Source of the DNA: Bacillus cereus
Lineage (GTDB): Bacteria > Bacillota > Bacilli > Bacillales > Bacillaceae_G
Reading direction: 5' to 3'
DNA: 64,000 nucleotides
Assembly: GCF_002584535.1 (NCBI RefSeq)
Contig: NZ_NUOT01000045.1
Location: forward strand, 1-64,000
Positions 4,784 to 47,436 of this stretch are shown piece by piece; position 1 is the first letter of the stretch; every line of letters starts with the position of its first letter. The translations under genes and the position numbers were made by a program. The notes below the pieces were generated by a model. It was given only the letters and a program-made list of their open reading frames with translations. It had not been told where the DNA came from and did no database searches.

Positions 4784-4849
4784 AAAAGGCGATGATGATT
4801 ACATCTTTGGCAAAAACAACTGCTTGATGTGGAGACTCATCGCCTTTTC
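4784..4849 (+). terminator. long-loop terminator/attenuator between prpB and the regulator
   Basis: AAAAGGCGATGA pairs with TCATCGCCTTTT across about 40 bases; a shorter ACATC/GATGT stem lies inside. It fills most of the 107-base gap to the regulator, leaving little room for a separate promoter, so the regulator may depend on read-through. Confidence 0.75.
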
Positions 4850-4885
4850 CTATTTCCTAATTGCTTGCAAAAGAGGTGGAAACAT

Positions 4886-6646
4886 ATGAACTTTATAGAA
4901 GATTACTCTGTAGGAAGATGGCTCAATAAAGATTGTCAATTTGTGAAAATGAGTAATACGATTGCAGAGGCAATCGATCTACTTGTCGCATCAAAAACTG
5001 ATGAACTGCCTGTACTAGAGGGGAAAAGAATGGTTGGTATAGCGAAATTAGTAGACTGTGTTCAGTGGATGAAGGAAGAAAATGATGTGAGTACTTCAGT
5101 TCATATGATTATAGATGATTCCTTCCATAAGGGAACGAGAAAAAAACAAATGGAAGGGGTTCAGCACCTGCCATTTTATGTGATAAATGAAAAAAATGGA
5201 ATGTTAGAAGGGGTTATAGATCAAAGAGAGATTTTTGCTTTTCAGAAATTTATAAAAGAGAAATTAGAAGATGCAGAGCGTGTAATTGAATGGTTACGGC
5301 TCTCATTTGATACGGCATATGAAGGTATAGCGATTGTAGATGAAAACGGCGTTATTCAAATGTTTAATGATACGTATAGCCGGTTCGTTGGCGTAACGAA
5401 AGACGAAGCAATTGGACAGTGTGCTGAAAATATTATTGAGAATACACGCCTTCCAGTTGTATTAAAAACAGGAGTACCAGAAAGAAATCAAGTACATCGT
5501 TTGCAAGGGCAAAACCTAGTTGTACACCGGATGCCAATTTGGAAGAACGGACGAGTAATCGGTGCTGTAGGCATGCTTATTCATGAAGGAATTTCAGATA
5601 TTTATAAAATACTAGAGAGATTTGATCAAAAAGATCGTGCTGTCAAACCGTCATTTTCTAAACCGAAGAAGAAGCAAATTCGATTCGAAGATATTCTTGG
5701 AGAAAGTCAGACGATTTCTGAAACGAAAAAAATGGCTCGAAAAGCAGCGCAGTCTAAGGCCTCCGTATTAATTACTGGTGAAAGTGGTGTTGGTAAAGAG
5801 CAATTTGCGCGTGCTATACATGATGCAGGTATAACCCAAAACGGTCCATTTATCAGTGTAAACTGTGCTGCTATTCCTGATAATTTACTAGAGTCTGAAT
5901 TGTTTGGCTATGCGGAAGGTGCATTTACAGGTGCGAAAAAGAATGGAAAGGCAGGGAAGTTTGAACTTGCGAATCATGGAACGTTATTTTTAGATGAGAT
6001 TGGTGACATGTCTTTATTAACGCAGGTAAAAATATTACGTGTTTTACAGGAAAGAGAAATAGAAAAAATAGGTGGCACACATCCAATTCCTGTTGATTTT
6101 AGGCTAATTGCAGCGACAAATAAAGATTTAAAACAAATGGTGAGAGAGGGTACATTTAGAGAGGACTTATACCATCGTCTTCATGTTATTCCGATCCATA
6201 TTCCGCCGCTCCGCTTTCGAAAACAAGATATCCCGCTTATTGTTGAAGAACATTTACAAAAATTATGTCACATGTATGGAACTGAAGAAAAAACAATTGA
6301 TAAAGAAGTATTGCGCCTAATGTTCCATTACAATTGGCCAGGTAATGTTAGGGAACTGATCAATGTGTTAGAAAGATTATTTGCACTATCGGATGATACG
6401 CATATACGAGCTAAAGATTTGCCAGAAGAATTCTATTATCGGGATATGGAGCAGAAAAAATTAGTACCTATGATTCAGTCTTTACCAGCAAAACAAGAAG
6501 CGATGAAAGTGGTACGTGAAGAGGAAGAACGAGGGCTAATTGAACGCGTTTTAAAAGAAGCAAAAGGAAATAAGTCAAAAGCAGCAGCATTATTAGGAAT
6601 TTCTAGGGCGACCTTATATAACAAATTGTCACGATTCAAAATCTAA
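4886..6646 (+). CDS. sigma-54-dependent transcriptional activator (CBS-PAS-AAA+-Fis)
   Basis: An enhancer-binding protein of 586 residues that opens sigma-54 promoters by ATP hydrolysis. Order: paired CBS-like segment (~10-130), PAS domain (~145-250, FDTAYEGIAIVDENGVIQMF), AAA+ core with Walker A GESGVGKE (~297), sigma-54-contacting GAFTGA (~345), Walker B LFLDEIGDM and WPGNVREL (~484), and a C-terminal Fis-type helix-turn-helix (NKSKAAALLGISRATLYNKL). Start: ATG 4886 behind GAGGTGG; an in-frame ATG at 4829 lies inside the terminator. Position between prpB and a sigma-54 promoter (6731) suggests control of valine/propionate catabolism; the ligand is unknown, though CBS and PAS domains suggest sensing of a nucleotide or a CoA-linked or acid metabolite. 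PrpR-like in role by inference only. Confidence 0.9.
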   Translation: MNFIEDYSVGRWLNKDCQFVKMSNTIAEAIDLLVASKTDELPVLEGKRMVGIAKLVDCVQWMKEENDVSTSVHMIIDDSFHKGTRKKQMEGVQHLPFYVINEKNGMLEGVIDQREIFAFQKFIKEKLEDAERVIEWLRLSFDTAYEGIAIVDENGVIQMFNDTYSRFVGVTKDEAIGQCAENIIENTRLPVVLKTGVPERNQVHRLQGQNLVVHRMPIWKNGRVIGAVGMLIHEGISDIYKILERFDQKDRAVKPSFSKPKKKQIRFEDILGESQTISETKKMARKAAQSKASVLITGESGVGKEQFARAIHDAGITQNGPFISVNCAAIPDNLLESELFGYAEGAFTGAKKNGKAGKFELANHGTLFLDEIGDMSLLTQVKILRVLQEREIEKIGGTHPIPVDFRLIAATNKDLKQMVREGTFREDLYHRLHVIPIHIPPLRFRKQDIPLIVEEHLQKLCHMYGTEEKTIDKEVLRLMFHYNWPGNVRELINVLERLFALSDDTHIRAKDLPEEFYYRDMEQKKLVPMIQSLPAKQEAMKVVREEEERGLIERVLKEAKGNKSKAAALLGISRATLYNKLSRFKI

Positions 6647-6665
6647 ACAACTTGTTATAAATGAT

Positions 6666-6689
6666 GTAAAACTGTCTAGACAGTTTTAC
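6666..6689. promoter_or_regulatory. perfect 24-bp palindrome, likely enhancer (UAS) of the activator
   Basis: Perfect dyad centred between 6677 and 6678, core ACTGTCTAGACAGT. Its centre is about 81 bp before the expected start of the sigma-54 promoter at 6731. The same ACTGTCT half-site recurs before the second sigma-54 promoter (13008-13045). A T-rich run follows, so it might also end the regulator transcript, but a dyad without a loop makes a poor hairpin. Confidence 0.6.
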
Positions 6690-6730
6690 GTTTTCTTTTC
6701 ATTTTGCCCATGTTCTATCAAGTTTTTAGT

Positions 6731-6748
6731 TTGGCATAGATTTTGCAT
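6731..6748 (+). promoter_or_regulatory. sigma-54 (-24/-12) promoter of the acyl-CoA dehydrogenase-mmsB-mmsA operon
   Basis: TTGGCATAGATTTTGCAT agrees with TGGCAC-N5-TTGC at correct GG-to-GC spacing (TGGCAT 6732-6737, TTGC 6743-6746). Lies 40 bases before the start codon and directly after a gene for a sigma-54 activator. Confidence 0.88.
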
Positions 6749-6786
6749 ATAAATAAAATGAAGACCGAAATGATAGGGGGATACAG

Positions 6787-8496
6787 ATGGAGAAAACAAA
6801 GTTGCAATGGGACGAATTTTTTTCGCTGAATAAGGAGCTTAATACTTCCTTTTTTACACCTGAGGATTTTTCAGGTGATGAAGATTTGATTGCAAAAACA
6901 ACAGAACAATTTGTTAAACAGGAAATTGTTCCTGAAATTGAAAATATCGAGCAACACAATTATCAAGTTTCTCGCAGATTGTTTGAAAAGGCTGGCGAAC
7001 TTGGATTGTTAAGTATAGAAGTTCCAGAAGAATATGGAGGATTCGAATTAGGAAAGGCAGTTTCTGGGCTGGTAGCAGAGAAGATGGGATATGCAGGGGC
7101 TTTTAGCGTTTCCTTTAATATTCATGCTGGAGTAGGAACGTTGCCATATATATACTATGGAACAAAAGAGCAAAAGGAAAAATACTTACCAAAAATCGCA
7201 TCGGGAGAATGGGTTGGTGCGTATGCGCTAACAGAGCCAAACGCTGGATCTGATGCGTTAAGTGCAAAAACAAGTGCTGTCTTAAATGAAGAGGGAACGG
7301 CATGGAAATTAAACGGTGAAAAGCAGTGGATTACTAATGCTCATATGGCTGATGTATATGTTGTTTTTGCGAAGACAAATAAAGGAATGACAGCATTTAT
7401 TGTCGAAAGAACATGTGAAGGTGTTTCGATTGGCCTAGAAGAAAAGAAGATGGGGATTAAAGGATCTTCAACTGCGACACTCATTTTAGAGGATGTTGTA
7501 ATTCCAGTAGAAAATGTATTAGGAGAAGTTGGAAAGGGACACCACGTAGCTCTTAATATTCTCAATTTCGCTAGATTGAAACTTGCTTTCGGAAATATTG
7601 GAACAGCGAAGCAAGCAATTGGCCTATCTGTTCAATACGGAAAAGAAAGAAAACAGTTTCAGACAGAGTTAGTTGATTTTACGATGATCCAAGAGAAAAT
7701 TGCGAATATGATTATTGCTACATACGGTGCAGAGAGCGCGGCTTACCGAACAGCAGGTGTAATTGATGAAGCGATTCATGAGAATGATGAAAGCATTATG
7801 CAGAAAATGTCTCAATTTGCAATGGAATGCGCAATCAACAAAGTAAATGCTTCAGAAACGCTTGGGAATATTGTGGATGAAGCAGTACAAATTCACGGTG
7901 GTTACGGTTATATGCAAGAATATGAAGTAGAACGATTATATCGTGATGCTAGAATTAGCCGTATATTTGAAGGAACGAATGAAATTAATCGTTTAACAGT
8001 TGCAAAAATGCTAATGAAACAAACAAAGCAACTAGGAGATCAAGTAGATGAAGGTACGTTTGAGAATGTAGAACGAAATCATCGTTATATTTTATTATCA
8101 AAACAATTATTGAAACAATCTTTGAAAACGCTATCTAAAACTCCTGAAATAAAAATTGAACAAGAGCAAGAATATTCACGCGTATTAGCAGACATGTTGA
8201 AAGATGTATATGTAATGGAGTCAGCATTTTTACGTACGAAGAAAGCGGTAAGTAAAAATGGTGAAGAAAAAGAACGTACAAAACAGCTTGTAACAGATGT
8301 TCTTTGTGAAGAAGGGTATCGCAAAGTAGAATCAGCAGCAATAGTTCTTCTTTCTGCAGCAGTGCAAGAAGAGCAGAATAGAAACGCTATTCTAGATGAA
8401 ATTGGTCAACTGTCAGTGCCTCTATATACGAACGTATTTACGAAAAAGAGAGAAATCGCAAAAGCGATTATAAATCGTGGGAAATATATTGTTTAA
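6787..8496 (+). CDS. acyl-CoA dehydrogenase (long form)
   Basis: FAD-dependent alpha,beta-dehydrogenation of an acyl-CoA. Context points to isobutyryl-CoA (valine catabolism), but the specificity cannot be read from sequence. The 569-residue protein has the usual domain (~30-400; EWVGAYALTEPNAGSDA flavin/substrate loop, QWITNA, IFEGTNEINR with the active-site region) plus a C-terminal extension of about 160 residues, as in the long AcdA/FadE-like proteins, unlike the ~380-residue MmgC of B. subtilis. ATG 6787 follows GGGGGATAC. First gene of a sigma-54 unit; mmsB begins 16 bases after its stop. Confidence 0.92.
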   Translation: MEKTKLQWDEFFSLNKELNTSFFTPEDFSGDEDLIAKTTEQFVKQEIVPEIENIEQHNYQVSRRLFEKAGELGLLSIEVPEEYGGFELGKAVSGLVAEKMGYAGAFSVSFNIHAGVGTLPYIYYGTKEQKEKYLPKIASGEWVGAYALTEPNAGSDALSAKTSAVLNEEGTAWKLNGEKQWITNAHMADVYVVFAKTNKGMTAFIVERTCEGVSIGLEEKKMGIKGSSTATLILEDVVIPVENVLGEVGKGHHVALNILNFARLKLAFGNIGTAKQAIGLSVQYGKERKQFQTELVDFTMIQEKIANMIIATYGAESAAYRTAGVIDEAIHENDESIMQKMSQFAMECAINKVNASETLGNIVDEAVQIHGGYGYMQEYEVERLYRDARISRIFEGTNEINRLTVAKMLMKQTKQLGDQVDEGTFENVERNHRYILLSKQLLKQSLKTLSKTPEIKIEQEQEYSRVLADMLKDVYVMESAFLRTKKAVSKNGEEKERTKQLVTDVLCEEGYRKVESAAIVLLSAAVQEEQNRNAILDEIGQLSVPLYTNVFTKKREIAKAIINRGKYIV

Positions 8497-8512
8497 ATAG
8501 GAGGAGAGTAGT

Positions 8513-9403
8513 ATGAAAAAGATTGGTTTTATTGGTTTAGGTAATATGGGCCTTCCGATGTCTAAAAATTTAGTTAAATCAAATTATACGGTATATGGCG
8601 TTGATTTAAATAAAGATGCTGAAGCTTTTTTTGAGAAAGAAGGAGGAATCATTGGCTTATCAATTGCAAAATTGGCAGAAACATGTGATTTGATTTTTAC
8701 AAGTTTACCATCACCGCGAGCTGTTGAAGCTGTTTATTTCGGCGAAGAAGGATTAATCGAAAATAGTCATTCGAATATTGTGCTAGTTGATACAAGTACA
8801 GTAGCACCGCAACTAAATAAAAGATTGGCAGATGCTGCGAATGATAAAAAAGTAGATTTCTTAGCAGCGCCGGTTAGTGGTGGAGTGATTGGAGCGGAAA
8901 ATCGCACATTAACTTTTATGGTCGGTGGATCAAAAGAAGTATATGAAAAAGGGTTATCGGTGATGGAAGTATTAGGAGCAAATATTTTTCATGTGAGTGA
9001 ACAAATTGACAGTGGCACAACTGTAAAATTGATTAATAACTTACTAATCGGTTTTTACACAGCGGGCGTTAGTGAAGCTTTGACATTAGCGAAGAAAAAT
9101 AATATGGATTTAGATAAAATGTTTGATATCTTAAATGTTAGCTATGGACAAAGTAGAATTTATGAACGTAATTATAAAAGCTTTATTGCACCAGAGAACT
9201 ATGAGCCAGGATTCACTGTGAATTTACTAAAGAAAGATTTAGGATTTGCGGTTGATTTAGCGAAAGAAAGTGAACTTCACTTACCTGTAAGCGAAATGCT
9301 TCTGAATTTGTATGATGAAGCTGATAAAGCGGGATATGGTGAAAAAGACATGGCTGCTTTATATCAGAAGGTAAGTGAGCAATTAATCTCTAGTGATAAA
9401 TAG
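8513..9403 (+). CDS. mmsB: 3-hydroxyisobutyrate dehydrogenase
   Basis: NAD-dependent oxidation of 3-hydroxyisobutyrate to methylmalonate semialdehyde. The 296 residues start with the Rossmann motif GFIGLGNMG (~5-13), carry the substrate loop APVSGGVIGAENRTL (~119) and the catalytic Lys in TTVKLINN (~171), as in beta-hydroxyacid dehydrogenases. Ribosome site AGGAGGAGAG. It stands between the acyl-CoA dehydrogenase and mmsA, exactly as expected for valine degradation; alternative substrates of the family (tartronate semialdehyde, 6-phosphogluconate-like) are less likely here. Confidence 0.92.
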   Translation: MKKIGFIGLGNMGLPMSKNLVKSNYTVYGVDLNKDAEAFFEKEGGIIGLSIAKLAETCDLIFTSLPSPRAVEAVYFGEEGLIENSHSNIVLVDTSTVAPQLNKRLADAANDKKVDFLAAPVSGGVIGAENRTLTFMVGGSKEVYEKGLSVMEVLGANIFHVSEQIDSGTTVKLINNLLIGFYTAGVSEALTLAKKNNMDLDKMFDILNVSYGQSRIYERNYKSFIAPENYEPGFTVNLLKKDLGFAVDLAKESELHLPVSEMLLNLYDEADKAGYGEKDMAALYQKVSEQLISSDK

Positions 9404-9447
9404 TAATGGATCCTAGAAAATATAAAAAATAAAAAGGAGCGAATACA

Positions 9448-10908
9448 ATGATTACAACAGAAATTAAACGAGTGAAAAATCATATTAATGGTGAATGGGT
9501 AGAATCTACTGGTACAGAGGTTGAAGCTGTTCCGAATCCTGCAACTGGAAAAATAATTGCGTATGTTCCGCTTTCACCAAAAGAAGATGTAGATCGAGCT
9601 GTTGAAGCTGCAAAAGTTGCTTACGAAACATGGTCAAAAGTGCCGGTTCCAAATCGTTCAAGACAGCTATATAAATATTTACAGCTTTTACAAGAAAACA
9701 AAGAAGAGCTTGCAAAAATTATTACATTAGAAAATGGTAAAACATTAAAAGATGCAACTGGTGAGGTGCAGCGTGGTATTGAAGCTGTAGAACTTGCAAC
9801 ATCAACACCAAATTTAATGATGGGTCAAGCACTTCCGAATATTGCAGGGGGAATTGATGGTTCAATTTGGCGCTATCCAATTGGAGTTGTTGCAGGTATT
9901 ACACCGTTTAACTTCCCGATGATGATTCCATTATGGATGTTCCCATTAGCAATTGCTTGTGGTAATACATTTGTATTAAAAACATCGGAAAGAACGCCAC
10001 TTTTAGCTGAGAGACTTGTAGAATTATTCTACGAAGCAGGCTTTCCAAAAGGGGTTTTAAACTTAGTACAGGGTGGGAAAGATGTTGTAAATAGCATTTT
10101 AGAGAATAAAGATATTCAAGCTGTTTCATTTGTTGGATCAGAGCCAGTTGCACGTTATGTATACGAAACAGGAACAAAATATGGAAAACGAGTACAAGCA
10201 CTTGCAGGAGCGAAAAATCATGCGATTGTTATGCCAGATTGCAACCTTGAAAAAACGGTACAAGGTGTGATTGGTTCAGCGTTCGCGAGCAGTGGAGAAC
10301 GCTGCATGGCATGCTCGGTTGTAGCAGTTGTGGATGAAATTGCTGATGAATTCATTGATGTTCTTGTGTCAGAAACACGTAAACTAAAAGTTGGTGATGG
10401 TTTCCACGAAGAGAATTATGTAGGGCCATTAATTCGCGAATCTCATAAAGAGCGTGTACTAGGCTATATTAATAGCGGTGTAGCAGATGGAGCTACTTTA
10501 CTAGTAGATGGTCGTAAAATTAATGAAGAAGCCGGCGAAGGATATTTTGTTGGAGCGACAATCTTTGATGGCGTAAATCAAGATATGAAAATTTGGCAAG
10601 ATGAAATCTTTGCTCCAGTATTAAGTATTGTGAGAGTAAAAGATTTGGAAGAAGGAATTAAACTGACAAACCAATCAAAATTTGCAAATGGTGCGGTTAT
10701 TTATACATCAAGTGGCAAACATGCACAAACATTCCGTGATAATATCGATGCAGGAATGATTGGCGTAAATGTTAATGTTCCAGCTCCGATGGCATTCTTC
10801 GCATTTGCGGGAAATAAAGCGTCCTTCTATGGTGATCTTGGAACAAATGGAACAGATGGTGTACAATTTTATACACGTAAAAAAGTTGTGACAGAACGCT
10901 GGTTTTAA
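9448..10908 (+). CDS. mmsA: methylmalonate-semialdehyde dehydrogenase (CoA-acylating)
   Basis: Converts methylmalonate semialdehyde to propionyl-CoA, CO2 and NADH, linking valine catabolism to the prpCDB products upstream. 486 residues, normal length; aldehyde-dehydrogenase fold with [23 protein letters not shown] and the catalytic Cys in SGERCMA (~286). The B. subtilis homologue is IolA, but no inositol gene is present, so the MmsA role is favoured. Ribosome site AAGGAG; 44 bases after mmsB. Transcription ends at the terminator 10946-10985. Confidence 0.94.
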
Positions 10909-10945
10909 TAGTTGAATAAAATACACATGTACATTGTTACTTGTA

Positions 10946-10985
10946 CAAAAAATACACCACTCGTTAGAAAGTGGTGTATTTTTAA
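10946..10985. terminator. bidirectional terminator between mmsA and the LysE exporter
   Basis: AAAAAATACACCAC ... GTGGTGTATTTTTT with A/T tracts on both sides, between converging genes. Confidence 0.88.
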
Positions 10986-10988
10986 TTG

Positions 10989-11621
10989 TTAACTATTCTT
11001 TTCGAAAGCTAACTTGATACCAAATCCAATTAAGACAATGCCAGTAATTCCTTGGATATATCTTTGGGTAGCTGTTTTTTTCATAAAAACACTAATTTTA
11101 TCAATTAAGAAGATATAAAAGGCAAACCATATTACGGTTAAAACAAGATAGGTAAGACCCATGATTAGAAATTGAACGAGTGTATTATAGTCAGGACTTA
11201 AAAATTGCGGTAAAAAAGTTAAAAAGAATACAGCGATTTTTGGATTTAAAAGATTGGTTAGAAACCCTTGGCGAAAACAGGAACTGTTTTCATCGGCATG
11301 TTTCATAGGTAGTTCATTCGTAGCTATGCTGTTTTTGTCTTTTAAAGATAACAGTGCTTTAATACCTAAATAGACGAGATAAATAGCACCGACATATTTA
11401 AAAATAGAAAATAAGAAAGCCGATTTAACAATAATAGCGGAAAGTCCAATTACAGCAGCTAACGTATGAATTAAAAGAGCGATACATGTACCGAAAACTG
11501 TTTTTACTCCTCCCATTTTTCCTGAAGTAAGGGTGTTTTTCGTAGCCATTGCGGTGTCAGGCCCCGGTAAAATAATAAGACAAATTGACATAATAATAAA
11601 AAGAAGATAGTTCGCCACCAT
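10989..11621 (-). CDS. LysE/RhtB-family amino-acid exporter
   Basis: Integral membrane exporter of about 210 residues with the six-helix LysE/RhtB pattern: LPGPDTAMATKNTLTSGKMGG near the N-terminus (family consensus PGP..), GAIYLVYLGIKALLSL, and FLTNLLNPKIAVFFLTFLPQF. Substrates in this family are amino acids or derivatives; none can be assigned. Start: ATG 11621 or the next GTG, behind AAAGGTGG; a GTG at 11624 is also possible. Converges on mmsA. Monocistronic. Confidence 0.87.
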   Translation of the reverse strand: MVANYLLFIIMSICLIILPGPDTAMATKNTLTSGKMGGVKTVFGTCIALLIHTLAAVIGLSAIIVKSAFLFSIFKYVGAIYLVYLGIKALLSLKDKNSIATNELPMKHADENSSCFRQGFLTNLLNPKIAVFFLTFLPQFLSPDYNTLVQFLIMGLTYLVLTVIWFAFYIFLIDKISVFMKKTATQRYIQGITGIVLIGFGIKLAFEKNS

Positions 11622-11771
11622 CACTCCACCTTTCTGTTTGTATGTTTTGAAAATTCAATCAAAATAAGTGTAACACAATTAAAGTTGTATGTTAAATAAA
11701 AATTAATTATGTTAAAGCGTATTTAATAAATTTATTCAAAGAGGTGTAAAATGTGGGAAATATAAATATCG

Positions 11772-11820
11772 GAAAAGGCTAGATGGAACAGCAAATGAGC
11801 TGTTTTCACCTAGCCTTTTA
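11772..11820 (-). terminator. terminator of the hydroxyisobutyryl-CoA hydrolase gene
   Basis: Long interrupted stem, AAAAGGCTAG on one side and CTAGCCTTTT on the other, with an inner AACAGC/GCTGTT arm, just past the stop at 11822. On the minus strand it ends in a T-run. Confidence 0.82.
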
Positions 11821-11821
11821 C

Positions 11822-12874
11822 TTATGCATTGAGAAGATTAAAGAATCGATTTACATCTTCATCTGAGACATCACTTAATTGTTTATATTTATATTGTGGG
11901 TTTTGATCTTTGTCTACTACGACGGAGCGTACTCCTTCAAAGAAATCTTCGTGTCTCATGAAATTTTTAGCGAGCACGAGGTCTGTCGCAAAGCATTCTT
12001 CTACCGATTTTCCCTTGCCATCAATAAGTTGTTTTAATGTTACTTTTAATGAAAATGGAGATTTTGATAGTAATGTTTCTTTCGTTTTTAAAGTAAAGGT
12101 ATTGCTAGCATTTTCTAATGAATGGACGATTTCTTCAATTGTTTGGAATGAAAAATGTGTATTAATTCCTTCTAATAAAGAAGCCAGTTCACTTTCTATA
12201 TTAGGGGTGGTTGCAAATTTATGAATGATTTCTTTTAAAGTAGTATGTACATCTTGCTGGTTCCAGTTAACATTTTCAAGTTCTGTAAGGAGAGCAGGTA
12301 ATGAATCAGATGTCATATAATAATCAGCAGCATTTATATATAATACATCAGCAGCTTTTAAAACAGATGCTGTTAACGCGACATAACGACCAGTTTGTCC
12401 AGGTGCTTTATTTAAGAAGTAAGCAGCTCCAACATCTGGGAAGAAACCAATATTCATCTCAGGCATTGCCCATTTTGTACGTTCTGTCACAATTCTATGT
12501 GTAGCACCATTCGTAAGGCCGACACCACCGCCCATTACAATTCCATCTAAACAAGCGACAATTGGTTTTGGGTAATGATATATATAAGTATCTATTTCAT
12601 ATTCTTCTTCAAAGAACTGTTCGGCATGTTGTAATGCAACTTCATTTGAACGTGCTTCATATAATGTTTTAATATCGCCGCCAGCACAAAATCCTTTTGT
12701 ACCAGCCCCTTTTAAGACGATAATGGCAATGTGGTCATCTTTCTCCCATTCTTTGAGCTTTTGTCCAATTGGTTTTAACATGTCATAAGATATAGAGTTA
12801 AGTGCTTTTGGACGGTTTAAAGTAATCGTTGCAACACCGTTTTCACTAATAGAAAATAAAACATTTTCGGTCAT
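11822..12874 (-). CDS. 3-hydroxyisobutyryl-CoA hydrolase (enoyl-CoA hydratase/isomerase family)
   Basis: Hydrolyses 3-hydroxyisobutyryl-CoA to the free acid that MmsB oxidises. The 350-residue length and C-terminal extension are those of HIBYL-CoA hydrolases, longer than simple ~260-residue enoyl hydratases. Crotonase landmarks: RPKALNSI, oxyanion-hole FCAGGDIKTLYEAR (~60) and MGGGVGLTNGATHRI (~110), and MPEMNIGFFPDVGAAYFL with the Glu/Asp pair typical of the hydrolases. Start ATG 12874 is preceded by GGAGGA; a longer in-frame start at 12922 lacks a good ribosome site. Transcribed away from the mms operon from its own sigma-54 promoter, so likely co-regulated with it. Confidence 0.9.
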   Translation of the reverse strand: MTENVLFSISENGVATITLNRPKALNSISYDMLKPIGQKLKEWEKDDHIAIIVLKGAGTKGFCAGGDIKTLYEARSNEVALQHAEQFFEEEYEIDTYIYHYPKPIVACLDGIVMGGGVGLTNGATHRIVTERTKWAMPEMNIGFFPDVGAAYFLNKAPGQTGRYVALTASVLKAADVLYINAADYYMTSDSLPALLTELENVNWNQQDVHTTLKEIIHKFATTPNIESELASLLEGINTHFSFQTIEEIVHSLENASNTFTLKTKETLLSKSPFSLKVTLKQLIDGKGKSVEECFATDLVLAKNFMRHEDFFEGVRSVVVDKDQNPQYKYKQLSDVSDEDVNRFFNLLNA

Positions 12875-12952
12875 TTCGAATCCTCCTCTTATATATCTTC
12901 TCATTCTTATTTCTCGATACAAGCTAAAATGTCCTTTATAATTTATCTAAAA

Positions 12953-12968
12953 TGCAAGTAGTGTGCCA
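12953..12968 (-). promoter_or_regulatory. sigma-54 (-24/-12) promoter of the hydroxyisobutyryl-CoA hydrolase gene
   Basis: Read on the minus strand: TGGCACACTACTTGCA, a full match to TGGCAC-N5-TTGCA. It lies about 80 bases upstream of the ATG at 12874. Confidence 0.9.
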
Positions 12969-13007
12969 ATTTTGGTATCTTTAATTAAGAAGAAGTAGTA
13001 GCGATAA

Positions 13008-13045
13008 AGTGTCTAACTGTCTAAACAAATGGGCATTAAGACAGT
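13008..13045. promoter_or_regulatory. likely enhancer sites for the sigma-54 activator
   Basis: Half-sites AGTGTCTA (13008), ACTGTCTA (13016) and an inverted AGACAGT (13039-13045) share ACTGTCT with the perfect palindrome at 6666-6689. The cluster centre is about 86 bp upstream of the expected start of the promoter at 12953-12968, nearly the same offset as at 6666. The remainder of 12969-13288 shows no gene. Confidence 0.55.
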
Positions 13046-23739: not shown

Positions 23740-23794
23740 CTGGAGAAACAAGGAATAGAAAAATAAACCGATGTAAATCGGCGTTTTCTTTCTC

Positions 23795-24015
23795 TTGTCT
23801 CTGTCCTTTTACCTGAGAGATTATCCGCTAATACAAGCGGATTTGCTCCTTCGGTGCTCTGTTTCCTCCGCACTATATGATAGGCGAGAGGGAGTCTCTC
23901 CAGAGATTCGTCCCCATGCAGTTCTACTTGTAAACCAAGACCTGAGAGTTTCAAAGCTGAGTCGTCAACTTTTTGCCCCGTCGGTAGATCAATTGATCTT
24001 CTCCTGAATGGTTCA
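23795..24015 (-). ncRNA. tandem glycine riboswitch
   Basis: Two consecutive gcvT-type aptamers on the minus strand. Upstream: CAGGAGAAGATCAATT, ACCGACGGGGCAAAA, AAACTCTCAGGT, then GAACTGCATGGGG. Downstream: CTCTGGAGAGACTCC, GCACCGAAGGAGCAAAT, AATCTCTCAGGTAAAAGGA and CAGAGAC. These are the conserved glycine-aptamer cores, in the normal tandem arrangement with a short linker. Glycine binding usually switches the following gene on. Confidence 0.95.
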
Positions 24016-27995: not shown

Positions 27996-28266
27996 CAATA
28001 AATGGATGTATTGCAAAAGCAAAGAAGAGGACACGAGTTATTTTTAACGGTTATACAGAGAAGGAAGGAATGCTGAGAACTTCCTAACGCAGGAAAATAA
28101 CTTACCACCTTAGAGCTGCACTAGGGAAAATGAAAGTATCTAGTGCCGTGTAAGCGACGTTACCGCAAAAGAAGCCATTGTATGTTTAGTATGATGGGAA
28201 TCTGGGTGGAACCACGGGTAAAAAGCACGCTCGTCCCTATTATTAGGGATGAGTGTGCTTTTTTAT
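27996..28266 (+). ncRNA. T-box leader of thrS
   Basis: Leader that reads uncharged tRNA. Stem I base GAGTTATTTT/AAAATAAC frames a specifier region with ACC codons (28104-28109), a Thr codon. The conserved T-box GGGTGGAACCACGG lies at ~28203-28216. The terminator GCACgCTCgTCCCTA/TAGGGATGAGTGTGC with TTTTTTA (to 28266) competes with the antiterminator formed through the T-box. Confidence 0.95.
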
Positions 28267-44045: not shown

Positions 44046-44090
44046 TAAAAAGGTTGTTAACCGTGCGATGGTAACAACCTTTTTATTGTT
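44046..44090 (-). terminator. terminator of the cold-shock protein gene
   Basis: Minus strand AAAAAGGTTGTTA ... TAACAACCTTTTT. Confidence 0.88.
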
Positions 44091-44094
44091 TAAA

Positions 44095-44298
44095 TTATAG
44101 CTTTACAACGTTTTTAGCTTGAGGTCCACGGTTGCCTTCTTCAACTTCGAAGCTAACTTCTTGACCTTCGTCAAGAGATTTGAAACCTTCGCCAGTGATA
44201 GCAGAGAAGTGAACGAATACATCGTTACCGTCTGCAACTTCGATGAAACCGAAACCTTTTTCGCTGTTAAACCATTTTACTTTACCTGTTAATGTCAT
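44095..44298 (-). CDS. CspA-family cold-shock protein
   Basis: 67 residues, a single cold-shock domain with RNP1 KGFGFIEV (~15-22) and RNP2 DVFVHFSAI (~26-34), the RNA-chaperone fold that melts structured mRNA. Start ATG 44298 behind GGAGG. Highly conserved, so the cspA-E paralogue cannot be told apart reliably. The long upstream region (44299 to about 44470) may act as a cold-responsive leader. Confidence 0.95.
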
Positions 44299-44743
44299 GG
44301 TAAGAGCCTCCTAAAAATAAGAAAAATAAATTACAATATGATCGGTCTTATTTCAATGAAAATAAAAATTCACATATTATCAAAAATCAATTATGAATAC
44401 GTATTATCCTTAATAGATGCTTGATAATATGCAAAGTGAAACGTCTATAAATTTGACCTTAAGACCTATCTTACAACAAATGGTGAGAAATAGCAAGTGC
44501 TGGAAGTAAGTGGAGTAAGGGAGGTGCTTCAATCACGCTACTGGTACAGTGATTGGATTGTATTTTATGTTTTTAAGTTCTTTATTAATTAGGTATAAAA
44601 ATAGGTCTTTTCAATGTAGTATGCCTAGTATAAAGTGCCTCAGATGATTAGGAATGGTATTTCTTATTGCCTTCTTTTTATTGAATATAGTAAATTTAAT
44701 GTAAAATAGGAAGTGTTTGTAAGTGGTGGAGGGAGGAGTAGTT
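44299..44743. other. intergenic region upstream of divergent csp and CPBP genes
   Basis: No intact gene. A plus-strand open stretch 44531-44647 (NHATGTVIGLYFMFLSSLLI) reads like a membrane-protein remnant without a start. A TTATTG-18-TAAAAT pair near 44680-44706 could be the promoter of the CPBP gene. Confidence 0.4.
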
Positions 44744-47414: not shown

Positions 47415-47436
47415 TTTATTTCATATATGAAATAAA
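47415..47436. promoter_or_regulatory. extended MarR operator before the MFS gene
   Basis: Perfect 22-bp palindrome centred on TTCATATATGAA (47420-47431), the longest of the three copies, ending 14 bases before the MFS ATG. Confidence 0.72.

What the first reader, a model, noticed from the sequence alone, without database searches (positions are those of the whole stretch)
6666..13045. Two sigma-54 promoters share ACTGTCT enhancer half-sites at the same offset
Seen: near-perfect -24/-12 promoters at 6731-6748 (plus) and 12953-12968 (minus). A perfect 24-bp palindrome with core ACTGTCTAGACAGT is centred about 81 bp before the first expected start; three ACTGTCT-like half-sites are centred about 86 bp before the second. 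The activator gene (GAFTGA, Fis HTH) lies at 4886-6646. Inference: this is the activator's recognition element, tying acyl-CoA dehydrogenase-mmsB-mmsA and the hydroxyisobutyryl-CoA hydrolase into one regulon.
Basis: partly seen in the sequence, partly recalled or inferred. Interest (0 to 1): 0.72.

Follow-up and report, generated by a model that had tools for sequence, protein, structure and literature searches.

The report
Two-promoter sigma-54 valine-breakdown regulon
Two stretches of DNA in front of valine-breakdown genes carry the same protein-docking pattern at the same distance from the same kind of promoter, and four relatives with the same regulator gene keep both, so that regulator very probably switches both gene sets on together.

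Summary
Both sigma-54 promoters exist and each has an ACTGTCT-containing element upstream. The shared element is better written as four half-sites, TGT-N5-TGT-N4-ACA-N5-ACA (two overlapping TGT-N12-ACA sites; one mismatch at each window promoter). Its core ends exactly 49 bp before the -24 element at both promoters. ACTGTCT alone, and even the array alone, is no rarer than chance; array plus promoter at that distance is (2 in the window, 0 in 200 shuffles).

The regulon inference is supported. Five genomes with a close dehydrogenase but no regulator there have neither, and hibch lies on the same strand downstream. Of 398 Bacilli genomes, only the three sampled ones with this arrangement have two distinct pattern matches, at exactly these genes.

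The four orthologues lack PAS but keep CBS, so CBS is the likelier sensor (inference). More distant relatives keep the element only in part or not at all. No B. cereus-group genome was available, and nothing here measures binding or transcription. New member of a known kind.

The parts
4886..6646 (+). Gene of the sigma-54 activator: CBS, PAS-like, AAA+ with GAFTGA, Fis-type HTH_8 with recognition helix SRATLYNKL
   Evidence: Pfam, NCBIfam PrdR model full length but below cut-off, tree
6665..6690 (+). Enhancer array of the dehydrogenase promoter, TGT-aaaac-TGT-ctag-ACA-gtttt-ACG, 11/12; contains the perfect palindrome 6666-6689; core 6673-6682
   Evidence: 5 of 1000 shuffles of the 140-bp upstream region reach 11 at any position
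6732..6747 (+). Sigma-54 promoter TGGCATAGATTTTGCA, 49 bp after the core
6787..8496 (+). Acyl-CoA dehydrogenase gene (isobutyryl-CoA by context)
   Evidence: NF058590 above cut-off
8513..9403 (+). mmsB, 3-hydroxyisobutyrate dehydrogenase, 16 bp after the dehydrogenase gene
   Evidence: Pfam; PDB 5je8 579 bits; gap; TIGR01692 below cut-off
9448..10908 (+). mmsA, methylmalonate-semialdehyde dehydrogenase, 44 bp after mmsB
   Evidence: TIGR01722 above cut-off; gap
11822..12874 (-). hibch, 3-hydroxyisobutyryl-CoA hydrolase gene, convergent to the operon
   Evidence: Pfam ECH_2; PRK05617 above cut-off
12953..12968 (-). Sigma-54 promoter TGGCACACTACTTGCA of hibch
13010..13035 (-). Enhancer array of the hibch promoter, TGC-ccatt-TGT-ttag-ACA-gttag-ACA, 11/12; core 13018-13027, 49 bp before TGG
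   Evidence: 3 of 1000 shuffles reach 11
13039..13045 (-). Further ACTGTCT half-site upstream of the hibch array

Best explanation
The elements at 6665-6690 and 13010-13035 are upstream activating sequences of the sigma-54 activator encoded at 4886-6646. Shown here: both promoters carry the same array at the same distance, and in the relatives examined array, sigma-54 promoters and the regulator gene between prpB and the dehydrogenase gene are present together or absent together. Inferred: activator dimers bind TGT-N12-ACA half-site pairs through the helix SRATLYNKL; two such pairs overlap at each promoter. When the N-terminal CBS module meets its signal, probably a metabolite of the valine / propionyl-CoA route, the AAA+ domains assemble and use ATP to open the sigma-54 polymerase complex. 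Acyl-CoA dehydrogenase, mmsB and mmsA on one strand and the hydroxyisobutyryl-CoA hydrolase on the other are then made together, most of the steps from isobutyryl-CoA to propionyl-CoA. No sigma-54-like site was found before prpC in the window scan, so the prp genes are not clearly in the regulon.
For: Same core-to-promoter distance, 49 bp, at both window promoters. Array at 12/12 before the dehydrogenase gene in 4 of 4 syntenic genomes (gaps 50, 51, 50, 50) and at 11-12/12 before ech-hibch in 4 of 4 (gaps 48, 49, 51, 51). Strict pattern in 16 chosen genomes: one match in each of these four, at the predicted place, one in G357, none in 11, reversed control 0. Relaxed pattern in 398 genomes: only G037, G111, G144 have two distinct places, exactly these promoters. 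Five of five regulator-free relatives lack promoter, core and array between prpB and the dehydrogenase gene, with hibch downstream on the same strand. Palindromic motif finding without the window finds the core and ranks the two window sites first and second. Window protein and its four orthologues form one clade, 99/97. Helix SRATLYNKL in 10 of 11 rows of the wider clade and in 0 of the other 23 rows.
Against: No binding or expression data. The array alone is not rare (27 of 100 shuffles). The relaxed genome scan also gave 13 other places in 11 genomes, and the reversed control 4 places in 4 genomes. G221 has only 10/12 (34 of 1000 shuffles reach it) and its hibch lacks the element; G347 has no core within 140 bp of its dehydrogenase or mmsB promoter and none before ech or hibch. 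G357 and G197 have cores at other distances. Non-palindromic motif finding chose other sequence in 2 of 2 runs, and with the guided, unsymmetrised matrix 13018 ranked third, behind 22740. The four orthologous genomes are two pairs of near relatives, so with the window there are about three independent lineages.
Confidence: 0.88

Rival explanations
1. The 24-bp palindrome at 6666-6689 is the transcription terminator of the regulator gene, and its likeness to the hibch half-sites is coincidence.
For: It starts 20 bp after the stop codon, folds well as RNA (-13.5 kcal/mol, z -3.90), and is listed as terminator-like with a T-rich tail, though only 3 of 13 pairs are G-C.
Against: In the four orthologues the same place folds no better than, or little better than, shuffles (z -0.3 to -1.9) while the four TGT/ACA triplets are kept. 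hibch has the element with no gene ending before it in the window. A second role as terminator is not excluded.
Confidence: 0.05
2. The sites are real enhancers but belong to another sigma-54 activator of the cell, such as BkdR.
For: Sites of TGT-N10-12-ACA type serve many Fis-type activators (PMC6615313, passages), and valine use in Bt needs sigL for bkd as well (PMC4428206).
Against: Regulator-free relatives G348, G233, G357, G197 have other sigma-54 activators but no match to the relaxed array-promoter pattern anywhere. The regulator lies beside the site in 5 of 5 cases counting the window. BkdR itself was not searched for in these genomes.
Confidence: 0.06
3. The likeness of the two upstream regions is chance in AT-rich DNA.
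For: Array alone: 27 of 100 shuffles of the window have two or more. ACTGTCT alone is at chance level.
Against: With the promoter at 48-51 bp: 0 in 200 shuffles, and both promoters have it at the same spacing in 4 of 4 orthologous genomes.
Confidence: 0.01

Closest known systems
PrdR (sigma-54 activator of proline reductase genes; NCBIfam NF041552)
   Same: Full-length match 7-584; [quoted passage not shown]
   Different: Score 496.7 against a cut-off of 795; neighbours and targets are valine and propionate genes, not prd genes
BkdR / bkd operon of Bacillus
   Same: Sigma-54 control of branched-chain amino acid breakdown (PMC4428206, abstract, sections 16-18, passages)
   Different: bkd covers the upper steps to acyl-CoA; here the steps after isobutyryl-CoA. 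Bt BkdR has two PAS/PAC domains in that paper; this protein has CBS and one PAS-like stretch
GabR and SoxR of B. thuringiensis
   Same: Sigma-54 activators of the same bacterial group that bind repeats upstream of their target promoters (PMC4279683, PMC4941409, passages)
   Different: SoxR's protected sequence is an AT-rich 11-bp inverted repeat with 7 bp between, not TGT/ACA arrays; GabR's is a 21-bp repeat whose letters were not seen
mmsB-linked relatives in G357 and G197 (L086, L084)
   Same: Same wider clade, helix SRATLYNKL, cores TGTCTAGACA / TGTCTGGACA upstream of mmsB
   Different: N-terminus without the CBS part; cores at 61-63 and 83-85 bp; GAFTGS instead of GAFTGA

Membership tests
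Sigma-54-dependent promoter | GG at -24 and GC at -12 with correct spacing | tested here: met
   TGGCAT-N5-TTGCA and TGGCAC-N5-TTGCA; kept in 4 of 4 orthologous genomes, as TGGTGC before ech-hibch in G111 and G144
Sigma-54-dependent promoter | Transcription requires sigma-54 | not testable with these tools
   No expression data; the B. cereus rpoN supplement could not be read
Fis-type sigma-54 activator (bEBP) | AAA+ with Walker A and GAFTGA, C-terminal HTH_8 | tested here: met
   PF00158 238 bits, PF02954 52.3 bits; GAFTGA
[quoted passage not shown]
   TGT-N12-ACA at both window promoters; definition from PMC6615313
Upstream activating sequence of TGT-N10-12-ACA type | Bound by its activator | not testable with these tools
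   No binding data
PrdR equivalog | NCBIfam NF041552 score above 795 | tested here: not met
   496.7 bits
PrdR equivalog | Linked to proline reductase genes | tested here: not met
   Neighbours are prp genes, acyl-CoA dehydrogenase, mmsB, mmsA, hibch
BkdR | Lies beside the bkd operon | tested here: not met
   Neighbours as above; no sequence comparison with BkdR was run

The most novel reading that the evidence does not exclude
An activator family in which the sensor is exchangeable while the DNA code stays: CBS plus PAS in the window, CBS alone in four orthologues, PAS alone in the mmsB-linked relatives, all with the helix SRATLYNKL and TGTYYRRACA-like cores. The CBS module senses a CoA ester or another adenosyl metabolite of the valine / propionyl-CoA route directly, and the overlapping TGT-N12-ACA pair at a fixed distance seats two dimers in one fixed geometry.
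Probability: 0.2. Interest if true: 0.65.

Novelty: new member of a known kind. Interest (0 to 1): 0.45.

Why it matters
It gives the lower valine pathway of this organism a candidate activator, a defined DNA element and a two-promoter regulon that I did not find in the parts read of two sigma-54 studies of the B. cereus group. Nature supplies plus and minus examples: without the regulator, dehydrogenase and hibch genes in one direction; with it, two sigma-54 operons (convergent in G111, G144, G037 and the window), which makes the claim easy to test. The CBS-only orthologues single out the CBS module as the likely sensor.

Tried and rejected
Looked for B. cereus-group genomes and reached none. 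The window's own genome is not held. Plasmids gave no match. The window's SbcC in 200 genomes gave at most 43% identity. The order of G012 held 15 genomes, none with a closer regulator.

Terminator reading of the palindrome: rejected as the main explanation, kept as a possible second role. ACTGTCT as the unit of recognition: replaced by the TGT/ACA array. Non-palindromic motif finding chose other sequence in 2 of 2 runs. One search lost nine rows through too strict a motif filter and then stopped with an error; one search replaced it.

CBS structure prediction reached mean pLDDT 60.2 and was not used further. Hairpin after prpB: a covariance model gave one strong forward-strand match in 8 of 14 genomes, all at prpB; those eight sequences had built the model, so the news is only that no strong match lies elsewhere. 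I read it as a conserved terminator. Rfam gave nothing there at gathering score.

Rows left out: one search extracted 15 upstream regions; one search scored 11 of the 15. The four left out (G347 dehydrogenase, G347 mmsB, G357 mmsB, G197 mmsB) have no core at 48-51 bp. Motif finding used 5 of the 13 non-window regions per run, G221 in both sets. Synteny was examined only for loci returned (at most 30 per search), not for all 116 of 398 genomes with a regulator match.
Full report
WHAT IS THERE. The window has prpC, prpD and prpB, then an activator gene (4886-6646), then acyl-CoA dehydrogenase, mmsB and mmsA on the plus strand, and hibch on the minus strand facing them, with a LysE-like gene between. 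The palindrome is the only perfect one of that length in 64 kb. ACTGTCT itself is at chance level: 7 found, 5.47 expected.

THE SHARED ELEMENT. Aligned by their promoters, the two upstream regions share a 10-bp core, TGTCTAGACA and TGTTTAGACA, both ending exactly 49 bp before TGG. Each core lies in an array TGT-N5-TGT-N4-ACA-N5-ACA with one mismatch in twelve letters. This equals two overlapping TGT-N12-ACA sites, one of them perfect at each promoter. [quoted passage not shown] By itself the array is not rare in this DNA: 27 of 100 shuffles have two or more. At 48-51 bp before a sigma-54 promoter it occurs twice in the window and not once in 200 shuffles.

CONSERVATION. Searching 398 Bacilli genomes with the regulator, and two families more deeply (24 and 39 genomes), gave four genomes with the order prpB - regulator - dehydrogenase: G111, G144, G037, G399. 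In a tree of AAA+ and HTH parts they form one clade with the window protein, support 99/97. All four have a sigma-54 promoter before the dehydrogenase gene with the array at 12/12 and gaps of 50, 51, 50, 50 bp. All four have a sigma-54 promoter before ech-hibch (ech is broken in G144) with the array at 11-12/12 and gaps of 48, 49, 51, 51 bp. One of the outer spacers is 6 instead of 5 in five of these eight arrays, and in G111 and G144 the -24 element before ech-hibch is TGGTGC. Against 1000 shuffles of each 140-bp region, 0 to 3 reach the observed score in these eight, 5 and 3 in the two of the window, 34 in G221.

THE NATURAL CONTROL. Eight of the 398 genomes have a dehydrogenase 64-72% identical to the window's. 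Three (G111, G144, G037) have the regulator before it. Five (G348, G233, G357, G197, G216) do not: prpB is followed directly by the dehydrogenase gene, no sigma-54-like site, core or array lies between them, and hibch lies downstream on the same strand.

GENOME-WIDE TESTS. The strict pattern TGTYYRRACA-N38-68-TGGCAY-N5-TTGCW in 16 chosen genomes gave one match in each of the four regulator genomes, at the predicted place, one in G357 beside a relative of the regulator, none in the other 11, and none for the reversed control. A relaxed pattern in 398 genomes gave 19 places in 14 genomes; the reversed control gave 4 places in 4 genomes. G037, G111 and G144 alone have two distinct places, the dehydrogenase and the ech-hibch promoter; G132 has three copies of one sequence; ten genomes have one place each, genes not examined. 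G399 lies outside that sample, and its ech-hibch core begins CGT, which the pattern would miss.

BLIND MOTIF SEARCH. A palindromic Gibbs sampler on five promoters without the window, and again on an alternative five (G221 in both), found this core at 48-51 bp, and its matrix ranked window 6673 and 13018 first and second. Without the palindrome condition it chose other sequence, mostly the regulator's coding end, in both runs, so the blind result depends on that condition. With a matrix from guided cores, 13018 was second when symmetrised and third, behind 22740, when not.

WHERE IT FADES. In the wider clade G221 has 10/12 at 49 bp before its dehydrogenase gene; before its hibch there is no core, and the one sigma-54-like match (TGGTGTGTCTCTTGC) lies at or beside a tRNA gene region, not at the gene. 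G347 has no core within 140 bp of its dehydrogenase or mmsB promoter and nothing before ech or hibch. G357 and G197 have cores at 61-63 and 83-85 bp before an mmsB promoter; that of G197 is a weak sigma-54 match (TGGCATGCAATGTGC) that I picked by eye. The two-promoter regulon is therefore shown for the window and its four close orthologues, about three independent lineages.

MECHANISM. Shown: the activator has CBS, PAS matches just under cut-off (22.4 against 22.6 bits), AAA+ with GAFTGA, and HTH_8. The four orthologues keep CBS (26-37 bits, cut-off 24) and show no PAS at E up to 1; L084 and L086 align without the CBS part (not scanned with Pfam). The helix SRATLYNKL is in 10 of 11 rows of the wider clade (L083 has SRSTLYNKL) and in 0 of the other 23, of which 19 have HR(S/T)TLY. 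Inferred: dimers bind the TGT-N12-ACA pairs, DNA looping brings the AAA+ assembly to the polymerase, and CBS is the pathway sensor. CBS domains often bind adenosyl compounds (recalled, no call), so a CoA ester is a reasonable candidate, but nothing here tests it.

KNOWN OR NEW. Searches of the held open-licence library listed no paper that I recognised as describing this regulon; one search listed 15 of 27 papers holding TGTCTAGACA. In PMC4428206 (abstract, sections 16-18 and passages) the Bt HD73 study names eight activators, none with CBS, and 16 operons; I recognise neither this regulator, the dehydrogenase operon nor hibch among them. Its sigL mutant cannot use valine, isoleucine or leucine as nitrogen source, which agrees but is also explained by bkd. 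PMC4524646 (passages) reports branched-chain degradation genes down in a B. cereus rpoN mutant and 32 predicted regulon genes; the tables naming them are in a supplement that I could not read, so hibch or the operon may already be listed there. Subscription papers are mostly not in the library. Activator class, promoter class and site type are all known, so I file this as a new member of a known kind.

LIMITS. No genome of the window's own group was reached. The genomes used for conservation are unnamed. Nothing here measures binding or transcription.

Noticed in passing
window 4785-4852 (+): Terminator-like hairpin right after prpB with an invariant stem GCGATGA, at the same place in 8 relatives with or without the regulator (fold z -4.06). 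Single copy where found; no Rfam family.
   Followed up: partly
L083, L084, L086, L001, L087, L085: GAFTGA loop of the AAA+ domain reads GAFTGS in five and GAFTGT in L085, an unusual last residue in a motif that contacts sigma-54.
   Followed up: no
L001 10830-10847: A paralogue in Peribacillus butanolivorans has a single TGT-N12-ACA dyad (TGTATAATTAGTTATACA) before a sigma-54 promoter at 10899-10914 and, downstream, permease, mmsB-like and aldehyde dehydrogenase genes.
   Followed up: partly
L165, L166, L167 (G078, G103, G114): Three genomes share an almost identical TGTTTAAACA-sigma-54 promoter region unrelated to this regulon by sequence; genes not examined.
   Followed up: no
window 23791-23913 (-), 28013-28241 (+), 44047-44384 (-): Glycine riboswitch, T-box leader and cspA thermoregulator at Rfam gathering score.
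   Followed up: no
window 47416-47435: The only perfect 20-bp palindrome in the window outside the one at 6666-6689.
   Followed up: no
PMC4428206 against window 4886-6646: The Bt HD73 study lists eight sigma-54 activators, none with a CBS domain; either the gene is absent there or was missed.
   Followed up: no
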